Below, one piece after another: positions 16,353 to 21,019 of a stretch of 64,000 bases of DNA. Origin of the DNA: an uncultured Opitutia bacterium (GTDB taxonomy: Bacteria; Verrucomicrobiota; Verrucomicrobiia; Opitutales; Opitutaceae); NCBI GenBank assembly GCA_903896015.1, contig CAITWF010000069.1, forward strand, positions 1 to 64,000, written 5' to 3'. A program made the translations under genes and the position numbers. How positions within the stretch are numbered: position 1 is the stretch's first letter; each line of letters begins with the position of its first letter. The notes beneath the pieces were generated by a model, which worked only from the letters and a program-made list of their open reading frames with translations, ran no database searches and was not told the origin of the DNA.

Positions 16353-17021
16353 ATGGAACGCCACTTCATCCTGCCCGCCACAATTGCGGCCGCGCTGCAC
16401 GCGGGGCTGCTGTTCGGAATTCGCTCTCACACTGACGATCTACCGCCGACGATCGGGAAAATTATTCAAAGGTGGCCGACGGAACCTCTGCCGCCGGAAC
16501 TGACACCGCCACCCGAGGCGCACGACGAGGAGCCGGCCGCAACGAAAGGAACTGCGGGCGACCCACCGCCAATGCAACCGGAGCGTCCTGAGCCGTCACG
16601 GCCGACTGATTTCACCTTCGATCCGCCGCAGAGCGAGAGGACCGTGAACATTGATGTGAAATCGGCGATTCCCGGACCGCGCGGCGATCCGTTCGGAGAT
16701 GACGTTGGCGACAAAGCGGGGCCGGGAGTTCTTCGGATCATCGATCTGGATGGCGCACCACGGGCGCGGTTGCAAGCGACGCCGAATTATCCGTTTGAGG
16801 CAAAGAGCCGCGGGCTCTCAGGCGAGGTGCTGGTGGAATTTTTAGTCGATGAAAGTGGCGCCGTCTTCGAACTGCGCGTCCTGCGGTCGAGCGATCGGAT
16901 GTTTGAGGAGGCGGCGTTGCGGGCGGTGGCACGGTGGAAATTTGAGCCGGGCCGGCGCGACGGACGGATTGTGCGGTTCAAGATGTCGGTGCCGATTGTG
17001 TTTCGGCTCGACGAAAATTAA
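16353..17021 (+). CDS. TonB family energy transducer
   Basis: A 222-residue TonB-like protein. The N-terminal hydrophobic anchor is HFILPATIAAALHAGLLFGI, followed by a Pro/Glu-rich periplasmic linker (residues ~35-100) and a C-terminal TonB domain (~140-222) with ATPNYPFEAKSRGLSGEVLVEF and AVARWKFEPGRR. It should couple inner-membrane proton motive force to TonB receptors such as the one at 53.7 kb. No ExbB/ExbD genes are adjacent. The 2.5-kb insertion element starts 16 bp after its stop codon. Confidence 0.88.
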   Translation: MERHFILPATIAAALHAGLLFGIRSHTDDLPPTIGKIIQRWPTEPLPPELTPPPEAHDEEPAATKGTAGDPPPMQPERPEPSRPTDFTFDPPQSERTVNIDVKSAIPGPRGDPFGDDVGDKAGPGVLRIIDLDGAPRARLQATPNYPFEAKSRGLSGEVLVEFLVDESGAVFELRVLRSSDRMFEEAALRAVARWKFEPGRRDGRIVRFKMSVPIVFRLDEN

Positions 17022-17029
17022 GCGACATA

Positions 17030-17037
17030 GCTCAGGC
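17030..17037. repeat. Left target-site duplication of the 17.0-19.5 kb element
   Basis: GCTCAGGC directly abuts the left inverted repeat and recurs exactly next to the right inverted repeat at 19530-19537. The next base (G) is also shared, so the duplication is 8 or 9 bp. IS903-type elements are known to make 9-bp duplications. Confidence 0.85.
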
Positions 17038-17056
17038 GGCTCTGTTGCATAAATCG
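17038..17056 (+). repeat. Left terminal inverted repeat
   Basis: GGCTCTGTTGCATAAATCG resembles the GGCTTTGTTGAATAAA terminal repeats of the IS5 family, IS903 group. It matches the complement of 19511-19529 at 14 of 19 positions. Confidence 0.85.
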
Positions 17057-17081
17057 TGTTCGTCCGCGGGAAGGCACCAGG

Positions 17082-18011
17082 TCAAGCCGCCGAGACGGTG
17101 GCTGGAGTGGGCCAACGGTTGAGAAGCTGAGCACGAAGCAGCGCTTCGTGCTCCTGATTGGGAGCACGGCGAGAACGAAGCCGCTGGCCGAAAGCAGCTT
17201 TGAGGCGGTGCATGGCGGACTCAGCGAGGGAGCGGCGATGGTAATTGACCGCGAGTTTCCAACCTTTGCGGCCGAGGAACCGTGCCTCTTCGACGGCGCG
17301 GTTGCGTTCGCGCCAGTCGGCGTCGGGGTGCAGCACAGCCCGATTGCCCGGTGGCGAAAGCAAGTGGGCGCGATGCCGTCTAGCCGCAGCGTAGCACATG
17401 CGCCGGCCATAGGCGCCGTCGCCAGTGACGACGGTGCCGTGGCCGGGCTGTGCGGCCGCGAGCACATCGCCGAGTACCTGCGAGTCGTGTAACTGACAGG
17501 AGGTGACGACGCCGGCGACCCCGAGCGAGGTTGTCGGATCAACGCCGAGGTGGATTTTGCGATCCGTCCGACGCTGGAAGCCATGCACCGTGGTGAGCCA
17601 GGTGCCGGGGCCGCGGATCTGGAGCCCAGTGGAATCAACCACGATACATCCGCCAGCCTTGGTCCAAGGCGGCAACGTCACGGCCGTGCGCCGGCGGCAG
17701 AGCGTGGACGGGTCAGGCACCGACAATGCGTGCAACCCGGCGAGCTCGAGCACCGAGCGGAGCAAGCCGACAGTCTGCCGCAGCGGAAGCCGATCGACCT
17801 GTTGGAGCACCAACCCGAGCATGATCACAGCTTCCGGATACACGGGCGGACGGCCGCGCTTGCCGGTGGCAACCGGCTGGCCCCACTGGCGCTCGAGGTC
17901 GTTCCCGAGATAAACGGTGAGGCTGCCGCGTTGGCGGAGCGCCCGATTATAGGCGGACCAGTGCGGAACATGCTTGCAGGGTGGGCGTCCTAGGCGAGTG
18001 TTCAGCTGCAC
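17082..18011 (-). CDS. IS5-family (IS903-like) DDE transposase
   Basis: A 309-residue full-length transposase. The N-terminal WSAYNRALRQRGSLT is the IS903-type start region. The catalytic triad appears as IVVDSTGL (Asp), VTGDGAYG (Asp) and RRSLAESAMHRLKAAFG (Glu in the R-x2-E-x-R/K-type helix). The stop lies 44 bp from the left inverted repeat, as expected. The start is GTG 18011, only 2 bp from the tnpB ATG on the other strand, so its promoter must lie within or beyond tnpB's 5' end. It looks intact and potentially active. Confidence 0.93.
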   Translation of the reverse strand: MQLNTRLGRPPCKHVPHWSAYNRALRQRGSLTVYLGNDLERQWGQPVATGKRGRPPVYPEAVIMLGLVLQQVDRLPLRQTVGLLRSVLELAGLHALSVPDPSTLCRRRTAVTLPPWTKAGGCIVVDSTGLQIRGPGTWLTTVHGFQRRTDRKIHLGVDPTTSLGVAGVVTSCQLHDSQVLGDVLAAAQPGHGTVVTGDGAYGRRMCYAAARRHRAHLLSPPGNRAVLHPDADWRERNRAVEEARFLGRKGWKLAVNYHRRSLAESAMHRLKAAFGQRLRSRRAPNQEHEALLRAQLLNRWPTPATVSAA

Positions 18012-18013
18012 AC

Positions 18014-19492
18014 ATGCGGAGCGCTAACCCAAAAGTTGAGGACGACCTTCCGCAGGAGGAGTTCCTGCCACCACAGACGCTGCGCCGTCGCGTGCGAGCA
18101 TCGGGGGCTGTGCTGATGGCGCAGGAAGCTGCCGCCCAGATCCGCAACGACGTGTACGCCGAGCTGCGCACGGCGCACCGCGCCCGCACAAAGCCGCCGT
18201 CGAAGATCGACCTCAAGAAAACGCTCAAGCATGCGCCGTCCGCCGTTGCCTTGGGTCGGGCGAAGCAGGTGCAATACGCAGTCGACGATGCCTGCGCGAT
18301 GTTCGCGTCCTATCGGAGCAACTTTTTCGAGTGGGCGAAGGATCCTGCTTCGCGACCTGGCCAACCGAAGCCGCCGAACTTCCATCGCCGAGGACAGCGT
18401 GCCCGGGTGCGGCTCGACTCCCAAGACTTCACGGTGAGTGACGACCGCCTGTATCTGCCCGAGTCACTCGGACTCGGGGTCATGGCATTGGTTGATCGCG
18501 ACGGCGAATCGCTCCTTCGCCCCGGCGACCGGCTCGTGGAAGTGCGAATTGAGCCGTGCCGTTCGCGCCAGTGGGTGCACGTCGACTTGGTGATCCGATG
18601 CAAACCCGCGCGGCTGACACCTCGCCTGCTGCTGCGCGGCACGCTCTTAGCGGATCTCGGCGTGGCCCGACTCATCACCTGTCTCGATGACGAGAACCTG
18701 CTGGCGTTCTTCGTGGATGGCGGCGTCGCCAAGGCGATCCTGCAACGGGGCGCCAAGTGGCACGCGCAGCTCCGGAGCGAGTCGAAACTGGACCTCCGTC
18801 ACGGCGAACGCCGGGCCGGGCAACTGGCGTCTCGCAGCGCCCGTCAGATGGATGACTTGATGAAGAAAGTGGCGCTGCTGGTGGTGACCTACGCGCAGGC
18901 CAAGCATCTCGCCCGGTTAGTCGTGGGCCGCAACGTGGACTGGAAGGGGGTGGAGATGGGAAAGCGCCAGAACCAACTCTTCACGTTCATCCCGCACGCG
19001 AAGCTGATCGCGGCCCTGCGCACGAAGTGCCAGCGGGCCGGCATTGAATTTATCGAGACCGAGGAGTCGTACACGTCCAAGACGGACCCTCTCGCCCAAG
19101 AGGCGATGGGGCCGAAACCGGAGGGTTACCGCTGGCTGGGATCACGCTGCACTCGTGGCAGCTTTCGTTCCAGCATGGGGTATGTCCTGCAGGCGGACGT
19201 GAATGGCTGCATCGGACTCGGTCGAAAAGTAGGAGGTGAGGAGTGGCTGGCGGTCTTCCGTCAAAAACTCGGAGCCTCTCCGGGCACAAGGCTCGTGCCC
19301 CGGAAAGTCCACGTGAATGGAGTCGGACCGGAATCAAGCCCGGCCGCCGGGATCAGGCATCCTCGCCTGTCGTCCCCCAGAGCGTGGATGAGTACGCAAG
19401 TTGCGCTGGTCAAGGCCGGGCTGCTGCCCGACCTCCAGTTGGTCGCTGTCGCGACTCATAAACCCACTCAGGAACTCCCCATGGCGGCCTAA
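18014..19492 (+). CDS. tnpB: TnpB-family RNA-guided nuclease with variant RuvC site
   Basis: A 492-residue protein of the IS200/IS605 OrfB (TnpB) family, ancestral to Cas12. The RuvC-I Asp is in LADLGVARLITC (D214), the central helices include KLDLRHGERRAGQLASRSAR, and the RuvC-III Asp is in QADVNG (D395). The usual RuvC-II Glu (xVIEDL type) is replaced by VVGRNVDWK, while TEESYTSK (E350/E351) holds acidic residues in a motif typical of one TnpB subgroup. The four-Cys zinc ribbon is absent. ATG 18014 is preferred to GTG 17981. The C-terminal ~90 residues are Pro/Gly-rich and may mainly reflect overlapping guide-RNA sequence. Nuclease activity is not proven; the frame is fully open. Confidence 0.85.
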   Translation: MRSANPKVEDDLPQEEFLPPQTLRRRVRASGAVLMAQEAAAQIRNDVYAELRTAHRARTKPPSKIDLKKTLKHAPSAVALGRAKQVQYAVDDACAMFASYRSNFFEWAKDPASRPGQPKPPNFHRRGQRARVRLDSQDFTVSDDRLYLPESLGLGVMALVDRDGESLLRPGDRLVEVRIEPCRSRQWVHVDLVIRCKPARLTPRLLLRGTLLADLGVARLITCLDDENLLAFFVDGGVAKAILQRGAKWHAQLRSESKLDLRHGERRAGQLASRSARQMDDLMKKVALLVVTYAQAKHLARLVVGRNVDWKGVEMGKRQNQLFTFIPHAKLIAALRTKCQRAGIEFIETEESYTSKTDPLAQEAMGPKPEGYRWLGSRCTRGSFRSSMGYVLQADVNGCIGLGRKVGGEEWLAVFRQKLGASPGTRLVPRKVHVNGVGPESSPAAGIRHPRLSSPRAWMSTQVALVKAGLLPDLQLVAVATHKPTQELPMAA

Positions 19493-19529
19493 CCGCCTCG
19501 GGTCTCATCCTGGATTATTCAACAAAGCC
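19275..19529 (+). ncRNA. Candidate omega-RNA (reRNA) overlapping the tnpB 3' end
   Basis: The last 220 bp of tnpB plus the 37 bp up to the element border hold a run of hairpins: 19279-19304 (TCCGGGCAC / GTGCCCCGGA with a bulge), 19339-19351 (CCCGG / CCGGG), 19354-19369 (CAGGC / GCCTG) and 19483-19497 (GGCGG / CCGCC across the stop codon). TnpB guide RNAs usually occupy exactly this position and read into the flank for their guide. The right inverted repeat contains TTCAAC (19517-19522), similar to the scaffold end reported for several TnpB RNAs. This is inference from position and structure. Confidence 0.4.
19511..19529 (-). repeat. Right terminal inverted repeat
   Basis: The complement reads GGCTTTGTTGAATAATCCA, closer to the classical IS903 repeat than the left end is. 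It lies 18 bp beyond the tnpB stop codon. Confidence 0.85.
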
Positions 19530-19537
19530 GCTCAGGC
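19530..19537. repeat. Right target-site duplication
   Basis: GCTCAGGC, identical to 17030-17037. It contains the stop codon region of the GreA-like gene (stop at 19532-19534), so the duplication left that gene's end intact. Confidence 0.85.
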
Positions 19538-20011
19538 GATGGACACGATGCGCTGGGCCGCCTGCGTGTTGCGGCCGGGCGTCGTTACCGAGTCGCCAAC
19601 GCGGCGGCCGACGAGTTGGCGGCCGAGCGGCGAGTGCGGTGTAACGACTAGCACCGGGCGGTCGTTGAATTTGAGTTCCATCCCGCCGGCGCGGGGGCCG
19701 AGGAAATACCACGCGTTTTGCTTGTCGCCGCCGACTCCGATGAGCGCGCCGAGCGCGATGGCGTCAGTCGCAGAAAAGGCGGGCAGCGGCAGCGTCGTGT
19801 AAAGCGCGAGGCTGGTTTCGATTTCCGCGGCCTGGCGAGCCTGACCCTCGGCGAGGTAGGCGGCTTCCTGACTGTGGGTATCGTATTTGTTTTCAGCGCG
19901 GCTCTCCTCGCTGATCGCCTCATCGCGGGCGAGGAGCGCGGCGTTGGTCTGGAGCGCGAGTTCGGCGCGAAGTTGCGCGAGGATGGCGTCGCGGAGGGCG
20001 GATTTGTTCAC
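19532..20011 (-). CDS. GreA/GreB C-terminal-domain protein
   Basis: A 159-residue protein. The N-terminal half is helical and charged, possibly a coiled coil. The C-terminal half resembles the GreA/GreB FKBP-like domain: VVTPHSPLGRQLVGRRVGDSV matches the SPLGRALIGKKVGD signature. Classical GreA is a similar length, so this may be a divergent transcript-cleavage factor or a Gre-like RNA polymerase binder. The acidic tip residues of GreA are not clearly conserved. The start is GTG 20011. It is divergent from the ParA gene. Confidence 0.7.
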   Translation of the reverse strand: MNKSALRDAILAQLRAELALQTNAALLARDEAISEESRAENKYDTHSQEAAYLAEGQARQAAEIETSLALYTTLPLPAFSATDAIALGALIGVGGDKQNAWYFLGPRAGGMELKFNDRPVLVVTPHSPLGRQLVGRRVGDSVTTPGRNTQAAQRIVSIA

Positions 20012-20119: not shown

Positions 20120-21019
20120 ATGGCGCGAAAAATCTGTTTCATCAATTACAAGGGAGGCGTCGGCAAGACCTCCCTCATCGTCAACACCGCCGCGGCGCTC
20201 GCGAAGATGGGGCAGCGCGTGCTGCTTTGCGACTTCGACACGCAGTCCAACGCGAGCATCTGGCTCATGAAGCTGGAGCGCTGGAACAAGGTTAACGCCG
20301 AGGGCGTCGGTTCGGTCTACTCAATCTTCGATCCGGGCCGGGCGCGCGTGCGCGAGCTCGTGGTGAAGGATGTCGTTGAGGGTAAGGCGGGCGAAAAACT
20401 GCTCCCTGGCCTCGATCTAATTCCGACGACGTTTAACCTCGTCGACCTCGAGAACGAATACAATGGCGACCCGAAGCGGCCGCACTAACTCGTATTTTAC
20501 GAGCAGCTCGCGGCCATCGAGGCCAGCTACGATTTCATTCTGTTTGATTGCCCACCGAATATTCTGCGCGCGTCGCAATGCGGTGTGTTTGCCTCGAACG
20601 AAATCTACGTCCCGGTCAACCCCGACGCGCTCAGTCTGATCGGTTTCACGCTGCTGGTGGAAAAGCTCACGAAGTTTCACCAGCTCTCGGCGAGTTTTCG
20701 CACCGCGGCCATGGGCGTGCCGGCGCAGGTGCAGGGCCTGATTTTCAACTCGATCAAAGCAGGCGTGGACATCGAGGTGCCGAAGATGCGGCTGCAGCTC
20801 CGGCTTAACCAGTTCAAAACCGCGAAACGCGCGGCACCGGCGGCAAAGATTTTCACGATGCAGATTCGCGACGCGATGGTCGTGCGCCGCGCGGTGGCGC
20901 TCGGTCTGCCTGTCGCGCTCGTCGGGGCCGACGCCGAGGCGGGACCCAATGCGGGCGACAACGTCGTCAACGACTACAAGAAACTCGCGGGTGAGATCGT
21001 GCAGCACGTGTCCGCCTGA
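20120..21019 (+). pseudogene. ParA/MinD-type ATPase gene with in-frame stop
   Basis: From ATG 20120 the frame encodes a ParA-family ATPase with deviant Walker A (NYKGGVGKTSL) and the switch region VLLCDFDTQSNAS. A TAA at 20486-20488 stops it after 122 residues. The same frame continues at once with LVFYEQLAAIEASYDFILFDCPPNI (Walker B) and a normal C-terminus to 21019. The total would be about 299 residues, the usual length, so one nonsense change (perhaps TAC to TAA) is the simplest reading. A GTG at 20585 could restart translation but would lack Walker A. Alternatives are sequencing error or readthrough. It heads a three-gene run. Confidence 0.75.

What the first reader, a model, noticed from the sequence alone, without database searches (positions are those of the whole stretch)
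18014..19492. TnpB with relocated or missing RuvC-II glutamate and no zinc ribbon
RuvC-I Asp (D214) and RuvC-III Asp (D395) are kept, but the canonical RuvC-II Glu position reads VVGRNVDWK. The acidic pair E350/E351 in TEESYTSK is the best candidate replacement, and the usual CxxC...CxxC ribbon is absent. Rearranged catalytic sites have been described for some TnpB/Cas12 groups. This copy is a chance to test whether such a site cuts or only binds, since nuclease-dead TnpB relatives act as repressors.
Basis: partly seen in the sequence, partly recalled or inferred. Interest (0 to 1): 0.6.

Follow-up and report, generated by a model that had tools for sequence, protein, structure and literature searches.

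The report
RNA-guided nuclease inside an IS5 transposon
The gene is a TnpB-type RNA-guided nuclease with a known alternative active site, but it rides inside a cut-and-paste IS5 transposon instead of its usual carriers, and the insertion sites of that transposon look matched to it, which suggests how such nucleases change hosts.

Summary
In detail: the RuvC-II glutamate position is glycine (G305), the acidic pair is E350/E351, and there is no zinc ribbon. This is not peculiar to this copy: the EE motif is in 23 of 23 aligned proteins (window included), none with a ribbon. It fits the published 'Ealt' TnpB/Fanzor site; the published spacing points to E351. Nothing suggests a dead nuclease (dN/dS 0.15-0.22 over residues 1-434).

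What is unusual is the carrier: a 2,492-bp IS5-family DDE element (17038-19529) with a divergent IS5 transposase, terminal repeats and an 8-bp target duplication. The pair is conserved in two other Opitutae genomes. The last ~260 nt encode a covarying structured RNA, a likely omegaRNA overlapping the ORF tail. In 16 of 16 readable left flanks TAG stands at a fixed place (TA outside the duplication, G its first base); the mirrored motif is at 1 of 15 right ends. An empty site would therefore read (A)TA-G-guide. Best reading: an active Ealt TnpB captured by an IS5 transposon, using the fixed insertion motif as TAM. No RNA or cleavage data exist. Whether transposase or TnpB sets the motif is open.

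The parts
17028..17030 (+). TAG motif at the left flank (T and A outside the target duplication, G its first base); proposed TAM together with the preceding A
   Evidence: present at this offset in 16 of 16 readable left flanks; ATAG in 14 of 16
17030..17037 (+). left copy of the target duplication GCTCAGGC
   Evidence: identical to 19530-19537
17038..17054 (+). left terminal inverted repeat GGCTCTGTTGCATAAAT
   Evidence: resembles the right end and the ends of sister copies
17082..18011 (-). IS5-family DDE transposase with Y-R-E-K signature
   Evidence: NCBIfam transpos_IS5_2 E 9.7e-68; Pfam DDE_Tnp_1_5 E 1.9e-24; signature at residue 257
18014..19492 (+). TnpB, Ealt type: D214, E351 (E350), D395, no zinc ribbon; residues 435-492 are read through the RNA region
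19270..19529 (+). predicted omegaRNA scaffold (5' boundary not known), running to the right end of the element
   Evidence: 95.0% of cells paired, 14 of 71 pairs with a change on both sides, 0 of 500 shuffles as high on four of five measures, 7 of 500 on the fifth
19513..19529 (-). right terminal inverted repeat (GGCTTTGTTGAATAATC on the - strand); also the 3' end of the predicted RNA scaffold
19530..19537 (+). right copy of the target duplication; start of the predicted guide
   Evidence: first base after the right end is G in 17 of 17 right ends
19530..19549 (+). predicted guide region (length of about 20 nt assumed, as in known TnpBs, recalled)
   Evidence: inference from position; no RNA data

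Best explanation
A 2.5-kb IS5-family transposon carries an active, Ealt-type TnpB and its omegaRNA. Shown from sequence: the IS5 transposase, terminal repeats, target duplications, conserved tnp-TnpB pairing, a covarying structure at the right end, conserved catalytic residues, and a fixed (A)TAG motif on the left side of every readable insertion. Inferred: the RNA reaches past the right end, so that the flanking DNA, beginning with the target duplication, is the guide. When the element leaves a site, or meets a sister chromosome without it, the empty site reads (A)TA-G-guide; TnpB uses (A)TA(G) as TAM and cuts it, and repair from the occupied copy restores the element. The occupied site is spared: the right flank has no TAM before it, and the left flank matches the guide only over the duplication (8 nt, 9 in the window copy). 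E351 replaces the canonical RuvC-II glutamate at the metal site.
For: IS5 transposase and TnpB families. Terminal repeats and ten paired target duplications, eight of them perfect, five of the ten within one contig. The same divergent pair at 78-81% TnpB identity in L009, L010 and L011, from two other Opitutae genomes. TAG in 16 of 16 left flanks against 0.35% of window positions, mirrored motif in 1 of 15 right flanks. IS5 elements without TnpB (39-41% identity): TAG at left in 1 and mirrored at right in 1 of 12 rows. RNA covariation. dN/dS 0.15-0.22 for TnpB residues 1-434, 0.45-0.92 in the tail over the RNA (10 pairs). Catalytic residues. Foldseek matches to Cas12f, TnpB and Fanzor2. Homologous gene junction without the insertion in relatives, readable in 2 of 4 looked at.
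Against: No RNA, cleavage or excision data exist. Truncated or decayed copies (C55, C27, C59, C99) also carry the TAG, so the motif is probably set at insertion and need not be due to TnpB. Mirrored TA (without the inner base) occurs at 3 of 15 right ends, so some symmetry is possible. The IS5-only controls are distant, and 18 of 30 loci gave no clear ends. RNAalifold's covariation term is small (-1.31 of -87.49), the structure was derived from the same 8 rows, and the window RNA folds only moderately better than shuffles (z -2.55, 3 of 200 as good). Foldseek TM-scores are low (about 0.3) and the distance of E351 to D214/D395 was not measured. The window copy has one unpaired cell in helix 7. 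That IS5 excision occurs and that TnpB affects retention are untested.
Confidence: 0.62

Rival explanations
1. TnpB is a tolerated passenger: the IS5 transposase alone sets the TAG insertion motif, and TnpB adds little or now does something else.
For: Truncated or decayed copies on C55, C27, C59 and C99 still have TAG at the left end; the 337-bp derivative on C66 has no TnpB gene and has TAG too, on both sides.
Against: TnpB dN/dS of 0.15-0.22 is like that of the transposase, 0.12-0.19, and the RNA covaries, so both seem maintained. A transposase acting on two similar terminal repeats would not be expected to orient an asymmetric motif (inference); distant IS5 elements show none.
Confidence: 0.22
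2. [quoted passage not shown]
For: Canonical RuvC-II Glu replaced by Gly; no zinc ribbon.
Against: The EE motif is in 23 of 23 rows, D214 in 18 of 19 and D395 in 19 of 19; the gene sits in an intact mobile element beside its transposase. TldRs come from RuvC inactivation (passages).
Confidence: 0.06
3. Chance neighbour: an IS5 element inserted beside an unrelated TnpB element.
For: Some distant relatives of this TnpB sit with IS200/IS605 or IS607 transposases.
Against: The terminal repeats and target duplication enclose both genes; the same 2-bp junction recurs in L009, L010 and L011.
Confidence: 0.02

Closest known systems
Ealt (alternative glutamate) TnpBs and Fanzors (Yoon et al. 2023, PMC10711439, passages)
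   Same: RuvC-II glutamate moved to just before the zinc-finger position; the window has the hydrophobic RuvC-I form (DLG).
   Different: No zinc ribbon; carried by IS5, not by IS607 or IS200/605.
Eukaryotic Fanzor1 and Fanzor2* in cut-and-paste transposons, including the IS4-type element ESvi-1B with 8-bp duplications (Bao & Jurka 2013, PMC3627910, passages; Yoon 2023, passages)
   Same: A TnpB homologue captured by a cut-and-paste transposon with terminal repeats and target duplications; the terminal repeat is predicted to be part of the RNA scaffold.
   Different: Bacterial host and an IS5 carrier. There the duplication is predicted to be part of the scaffold; here the only strictly conserved motif lies at and outside the outer edge of the duplication, so the duplication is more likely part of the guide.
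IS200/IS605 and IS607 TnpB elements (ISDra2, ISXfa1; partly recalled)
   Same: omegaRNA at the right end overlapping the tnpB tail; TAM at the left flank coinciding with the insertion motif (recalled for IS200/IS605).
   Different: DDE transposase, inverted repeats, 8-9-bp duplications. A survey of six species sorts TnpB elements into IS605, IS607 and IS1341 only and notes that the IS605 and IS607 transposases lack a DDE domain (PMC9956272, passages).
IS5 family, NF033579 subgroup (IS903-like ends, recalled)
   Same: Transposase, ends, 8-9-bp duplications.
   Different: Carries an RNA-guided nuclease and has an oriented insertion motif.

Membership tests
TnpB / OMEGA nucleases | RuvC D-E-D triad | tested here: met
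   D214, E351 (alternative site) and D395 conserved
TnpB / OMEGA nucleases | TnpB/Cas12f fold | tested here: met
   Foldseek E 7.0e-14 to AsCas12f (8j3r), 6.1e-12 to TnpB (8h1j), 4.1e-10 to ISDra2 TnpB (8exa), 3.8e-10 to mimivirus Fanzor2 (9b0l); TM-scores only about 0.3, from a model of pLDDT 67
TnpB / OMEGA nucleases | structured omegaRNA at the right end | tested here: met
   covariation above shuffles and slid controls; prediction only, no RNA data
TnpB / OMEGA nucleases | guide-dependent cleavage next to a TAM | not testable with these tools
   needs a TAM assay
Ealt TnpBs | glutamate seven positions before the first zinc-finger Cys, canonical Glu lost | tested here: met
   E351 to D358 spacing (D358 stands where the Cys would be); G305 at the old site
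Ealt TnpBs | CxxC zinc finger (part of the published search motif) | tested here: not met
   absent here and in the 22 other aligned proteins; a group without a ribbon
Fanzor / pro-Fanzor | DPG at RuvC-I with Ealt | tested here: not met
   window has DLG; DPG in L022, L027 and L029 only, of 23
IS200/IS605 or IS607 element | Y1 or serine transposase partner | tested here: not met
   the partner is an IS5 DDE transposase
IS5 family element | DDE transposase with Y-R-E-K, terminal repeats, target duplication | tested here: met
TldR repressor | lost RuvC catalytic residues | tested here: not met

The most novel reading that the evidence does not exclude
TnpB with its RNA takes part in choosing or orienting the insertion: TAM recognition by TnpB licenses the IS5 transposase, so the element only enters next to (A)TAG and only in one orientation. 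That would be a DDE transposon whose target choice depends on the TAM reading of an RNA-guided nuclease, outside CRISPR-associated transposons.
Probability: 0.1. Interest if true: 0.88.

Novelty: new variant of a known kind. Interest (0 to 1): 0.6.

Why it matters
It appears to be a bacterial case of what is known from eukaryotic Fanzors: an RNA-guided nuclease that changed to a DDE transposon, here with a matching insertion motif. It gives a small, testable system for how TnpB adapts to a carrier that makes target duplications, and for whether such nucleases keep cut-and-paste elements from being lost. The listings of my searches showed no bacterial TnpB in a DDE insertion sequence; I read listings and passages, not all the papers listed, and key papers such as the PNAS 2023 TnpB survey are not held, so priority is not established.

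Tried and rejected
Rfam scan of 16900-19700: no match up to E 1. Sigma-70 scan of 16950-19650: none found. phmmer of the single protein against the PDB found nothing relevant; a profile reached AsCas12f weakly (E 0.019). In a class sample of 384 genomes the TnpB (E up to 1e-30) and the transposase (E up to 1e-40) were found only in the window's own genome; in a family sample of 252 the TnpB (E up to 1e-20) was in 4, the own genome included. Viral contigs: 2 distant loci of one contig, none with the IS5-clade alignment. Plasmids (72 records, 30 listed) and phages (32 records, 8 listed): every best match is under 60% identity. In 38 related loci the tblastn of the window transposase (E up to 0.01) found nothing, but some loci have short flanks. 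I rejected 'duplication in the scaffold' as the main reading because no strictly conserved base appears inside the duplication after its first G.

Rows dropped: the left flank of C20 (2 nt left on the contig); right flanks of C20 (2 nt) and of G385 C45 (6 nt; probably the same insertion as C7) from the count of 15, though both begin with G and are in the 17. Six of the 16 left flanks have no right partner, so their duplication is not seen. Five of the ten pairs join ends on different contigs and are inferred; two of ten are imperfect (G384 C13 7 of 8, C66 8 of 9). In one search two of 12 rows (L139, L145) have ends unlike IS5 repeats; without them TAG is 1 of 10 at left and 1 of 10 at right. 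Of 22 loci I tested 10 upstream ORFs. Many pairs of the RNA model never vary and say nothing. Of the four relatives whose empty site I aligned, L153 and L155 align well at the junction (there GGCGCTCAG, without the TAG), L156 and L157 poorly. The tree program warned of long branches.

Full report
WHAT IS THERE. The ORF at 18014-19492 (+) encodes a 492-residue TnpB.

THE ACTIVE SITE IS A KNOWN ALTERNATIVE. I aligned 19 proteins and 8 proteins, 23 distinct in all, the window's included. The EExx[TS]S motif is in 23 of 23. D395 is in 19 of 19, G305 in 19 of 19 and D214 in 18 of 19 (L015 has Gly). Yoon et al. 2023 (PMC10711439; passages read, not the whole text) describe canonical and alternative RuvC-II glutamates, the latter with six residues between it and the first Cys of the zinc finger. 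Counting back from D358, which stands where that Cys would be, gives E351. In the AlphaFold model (pLDDT 67, pTM 0.49; block 351-360 only 44) G305 ends one strand (299-305) and E350/E351 directly follow another (345-349), as expected if the two positions are alternatives, but distances could not be measured. Foldseek finds AsCas12f (E 7.0e-14), TnpB 8h1j (6.1e-12), ISDra2 TnpB 8exa (4.1e-10) and mimivirus Fanzor2 (3.8e-10), with low TM-scores of about 0.3.

THE CARRIER IS AN IS5 TRANSPOSON. On the other strand, starting 2 bp away, is an IS5-family DDE transposase (17082-18011) with the Y-R-E-K signature. Both genes lie between terminal repeats GGCTCTGTTGCATAAAT (17038) and GGCTTTGTTGAATAATC (reverse strand, outer end at 19529), flanked by GCTCAGGC on both sides. 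The element is 2,492 bp and sits between convergent TonB-like and GreA-like genes (the GreA match is just below its cut-off). A search with the joined flanks found the gene junction without an insertion in relatives at about 65% identity; of four aligned, two are clear at the junction. Sister elements with the same layout are in two other Opitutae genomes at 78-81% TnpB identity. A related TnpB part with a right end is in a fourth genome, whose contig stops on the side where a transposase would be. The window's own genome has 8 places for TnpB and 16 rows, some overlapping, for the transposase, many of them fragments or at contig ends. In a tree of 23 proteins the four IS5-borne TnpBs form one clade on a long branch (support 100/100). 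Distant relatives are beside IS200/IS605 transposases (Vibrio; Sphaerospermopsis; 4 of 10 upstream ORFs tested) or IS607 (Campylobacter; Segatella), and one has no transposase annotated nearby (Pseudomonas).

THE RIGHT END ENCODES A STRUCTURED RNA. In 8 copies the last 260 nt share a predicted structure: 95.0% of cells paired and 14 of 71 pairs with changes on both sides. Of 500 shuffles none is as high on four of five measures and 7 on the fifth; with slid partners at most 4 pairs have such changes. Limits: the structure comes from the same 8 rows, one of them partial and near-identical to the window, and RNAalifold's covariation term is small. One hairpin reads GTCGC...GCGAC in 6 copies and GTTAC...GTAAC in L009 and L010. 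The window sequence alone folds moderately better than shuffles (z -2.55). The RNA lies over codons 419-492 and ends in the terminal repeat. dN/dS, by a script of mine, is 0.15-0.22 for residues 1-434 and 0.45-0.92 for residues 435-492 (10 pairs each), and 0.12-0.19 for the transposase (6 pairs). So the ORF tail seems shaped by the RNA and the body by protein function.

THE INSERTION MOTIF. In 16 of 16 left flanks that can be read, TAG lies 10 (13 flanks) or 11 (3 flanks) bases before the repeat; the base before is A in 14 and G in 2. In the ten insertions with both ends, TA is just outside the duplication and G is its first base. TAG makes up 0.35% of window positions. On the right side the first base is G in 17 of 17, the full mirrored motif occurs in 1 of 15 and mirrored TA in 3 of 15. 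Among IS5 elements without TnpB it is 1 of 12 at the left and 1 of 12 at the right. The motif is thus oriented relative to the element. This is what a TnpB needs: guide taken from the right flank, TAM on the left. In eukaryotic Fanzors of such transposons the duplication is predicted to belong to the RNA scaffold; here the duplication varies after its first base, so I place it in the guide.

WHAT IS NOT SETTLED. Truncated and decayed copies carry the same TAG, which points to a choice made at insertion. The transposase could make it alone, with TnpB adapted to it, as in IS200/IS605 (recalled). The bolder reading is that TnpB takes part. The controls are too distant to decide.

VERDICT. A real and probably active Ealt TnpB. 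The active site is known; the bacterial IS5 carrier with a matched TAM-like motif is the finding. The listings of the paper searches showed no such case in the library held, which lacks most subscription papers.

Noticed in passing
18011-18014: The divergent starts of the IS5 transposase and TnpB are 2 bp apart, also in L009-L011, so any promoter must lie inside the opposite gene; the sigma-70 scan found none.
   Followed up: partly
L047 1484-1820 (own genome contig C66): A 337-bp deletion derivative of the element with an imperfect 9-bp duplication and TAG on both sides.
   Followed up: partly
L022, L027, L029: Cyanobacterial relatives that combine DPG at RuvC-I with the alternative glutamate but have no zinc ribbon; of interest for the origin of Fanzors.
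   Followed up: no
20120-20485: ParA-like ATPase ORF of only 122 aa that stops early; another ORF starts at 20585. Possibly a frameshift or an assembly error.
   Followed up: no
G384 contig C38 (L076, L086): A decayed sister copy still flanked by a perfect 8-bp duplication GCTCCTGA.
   Followed up: partly
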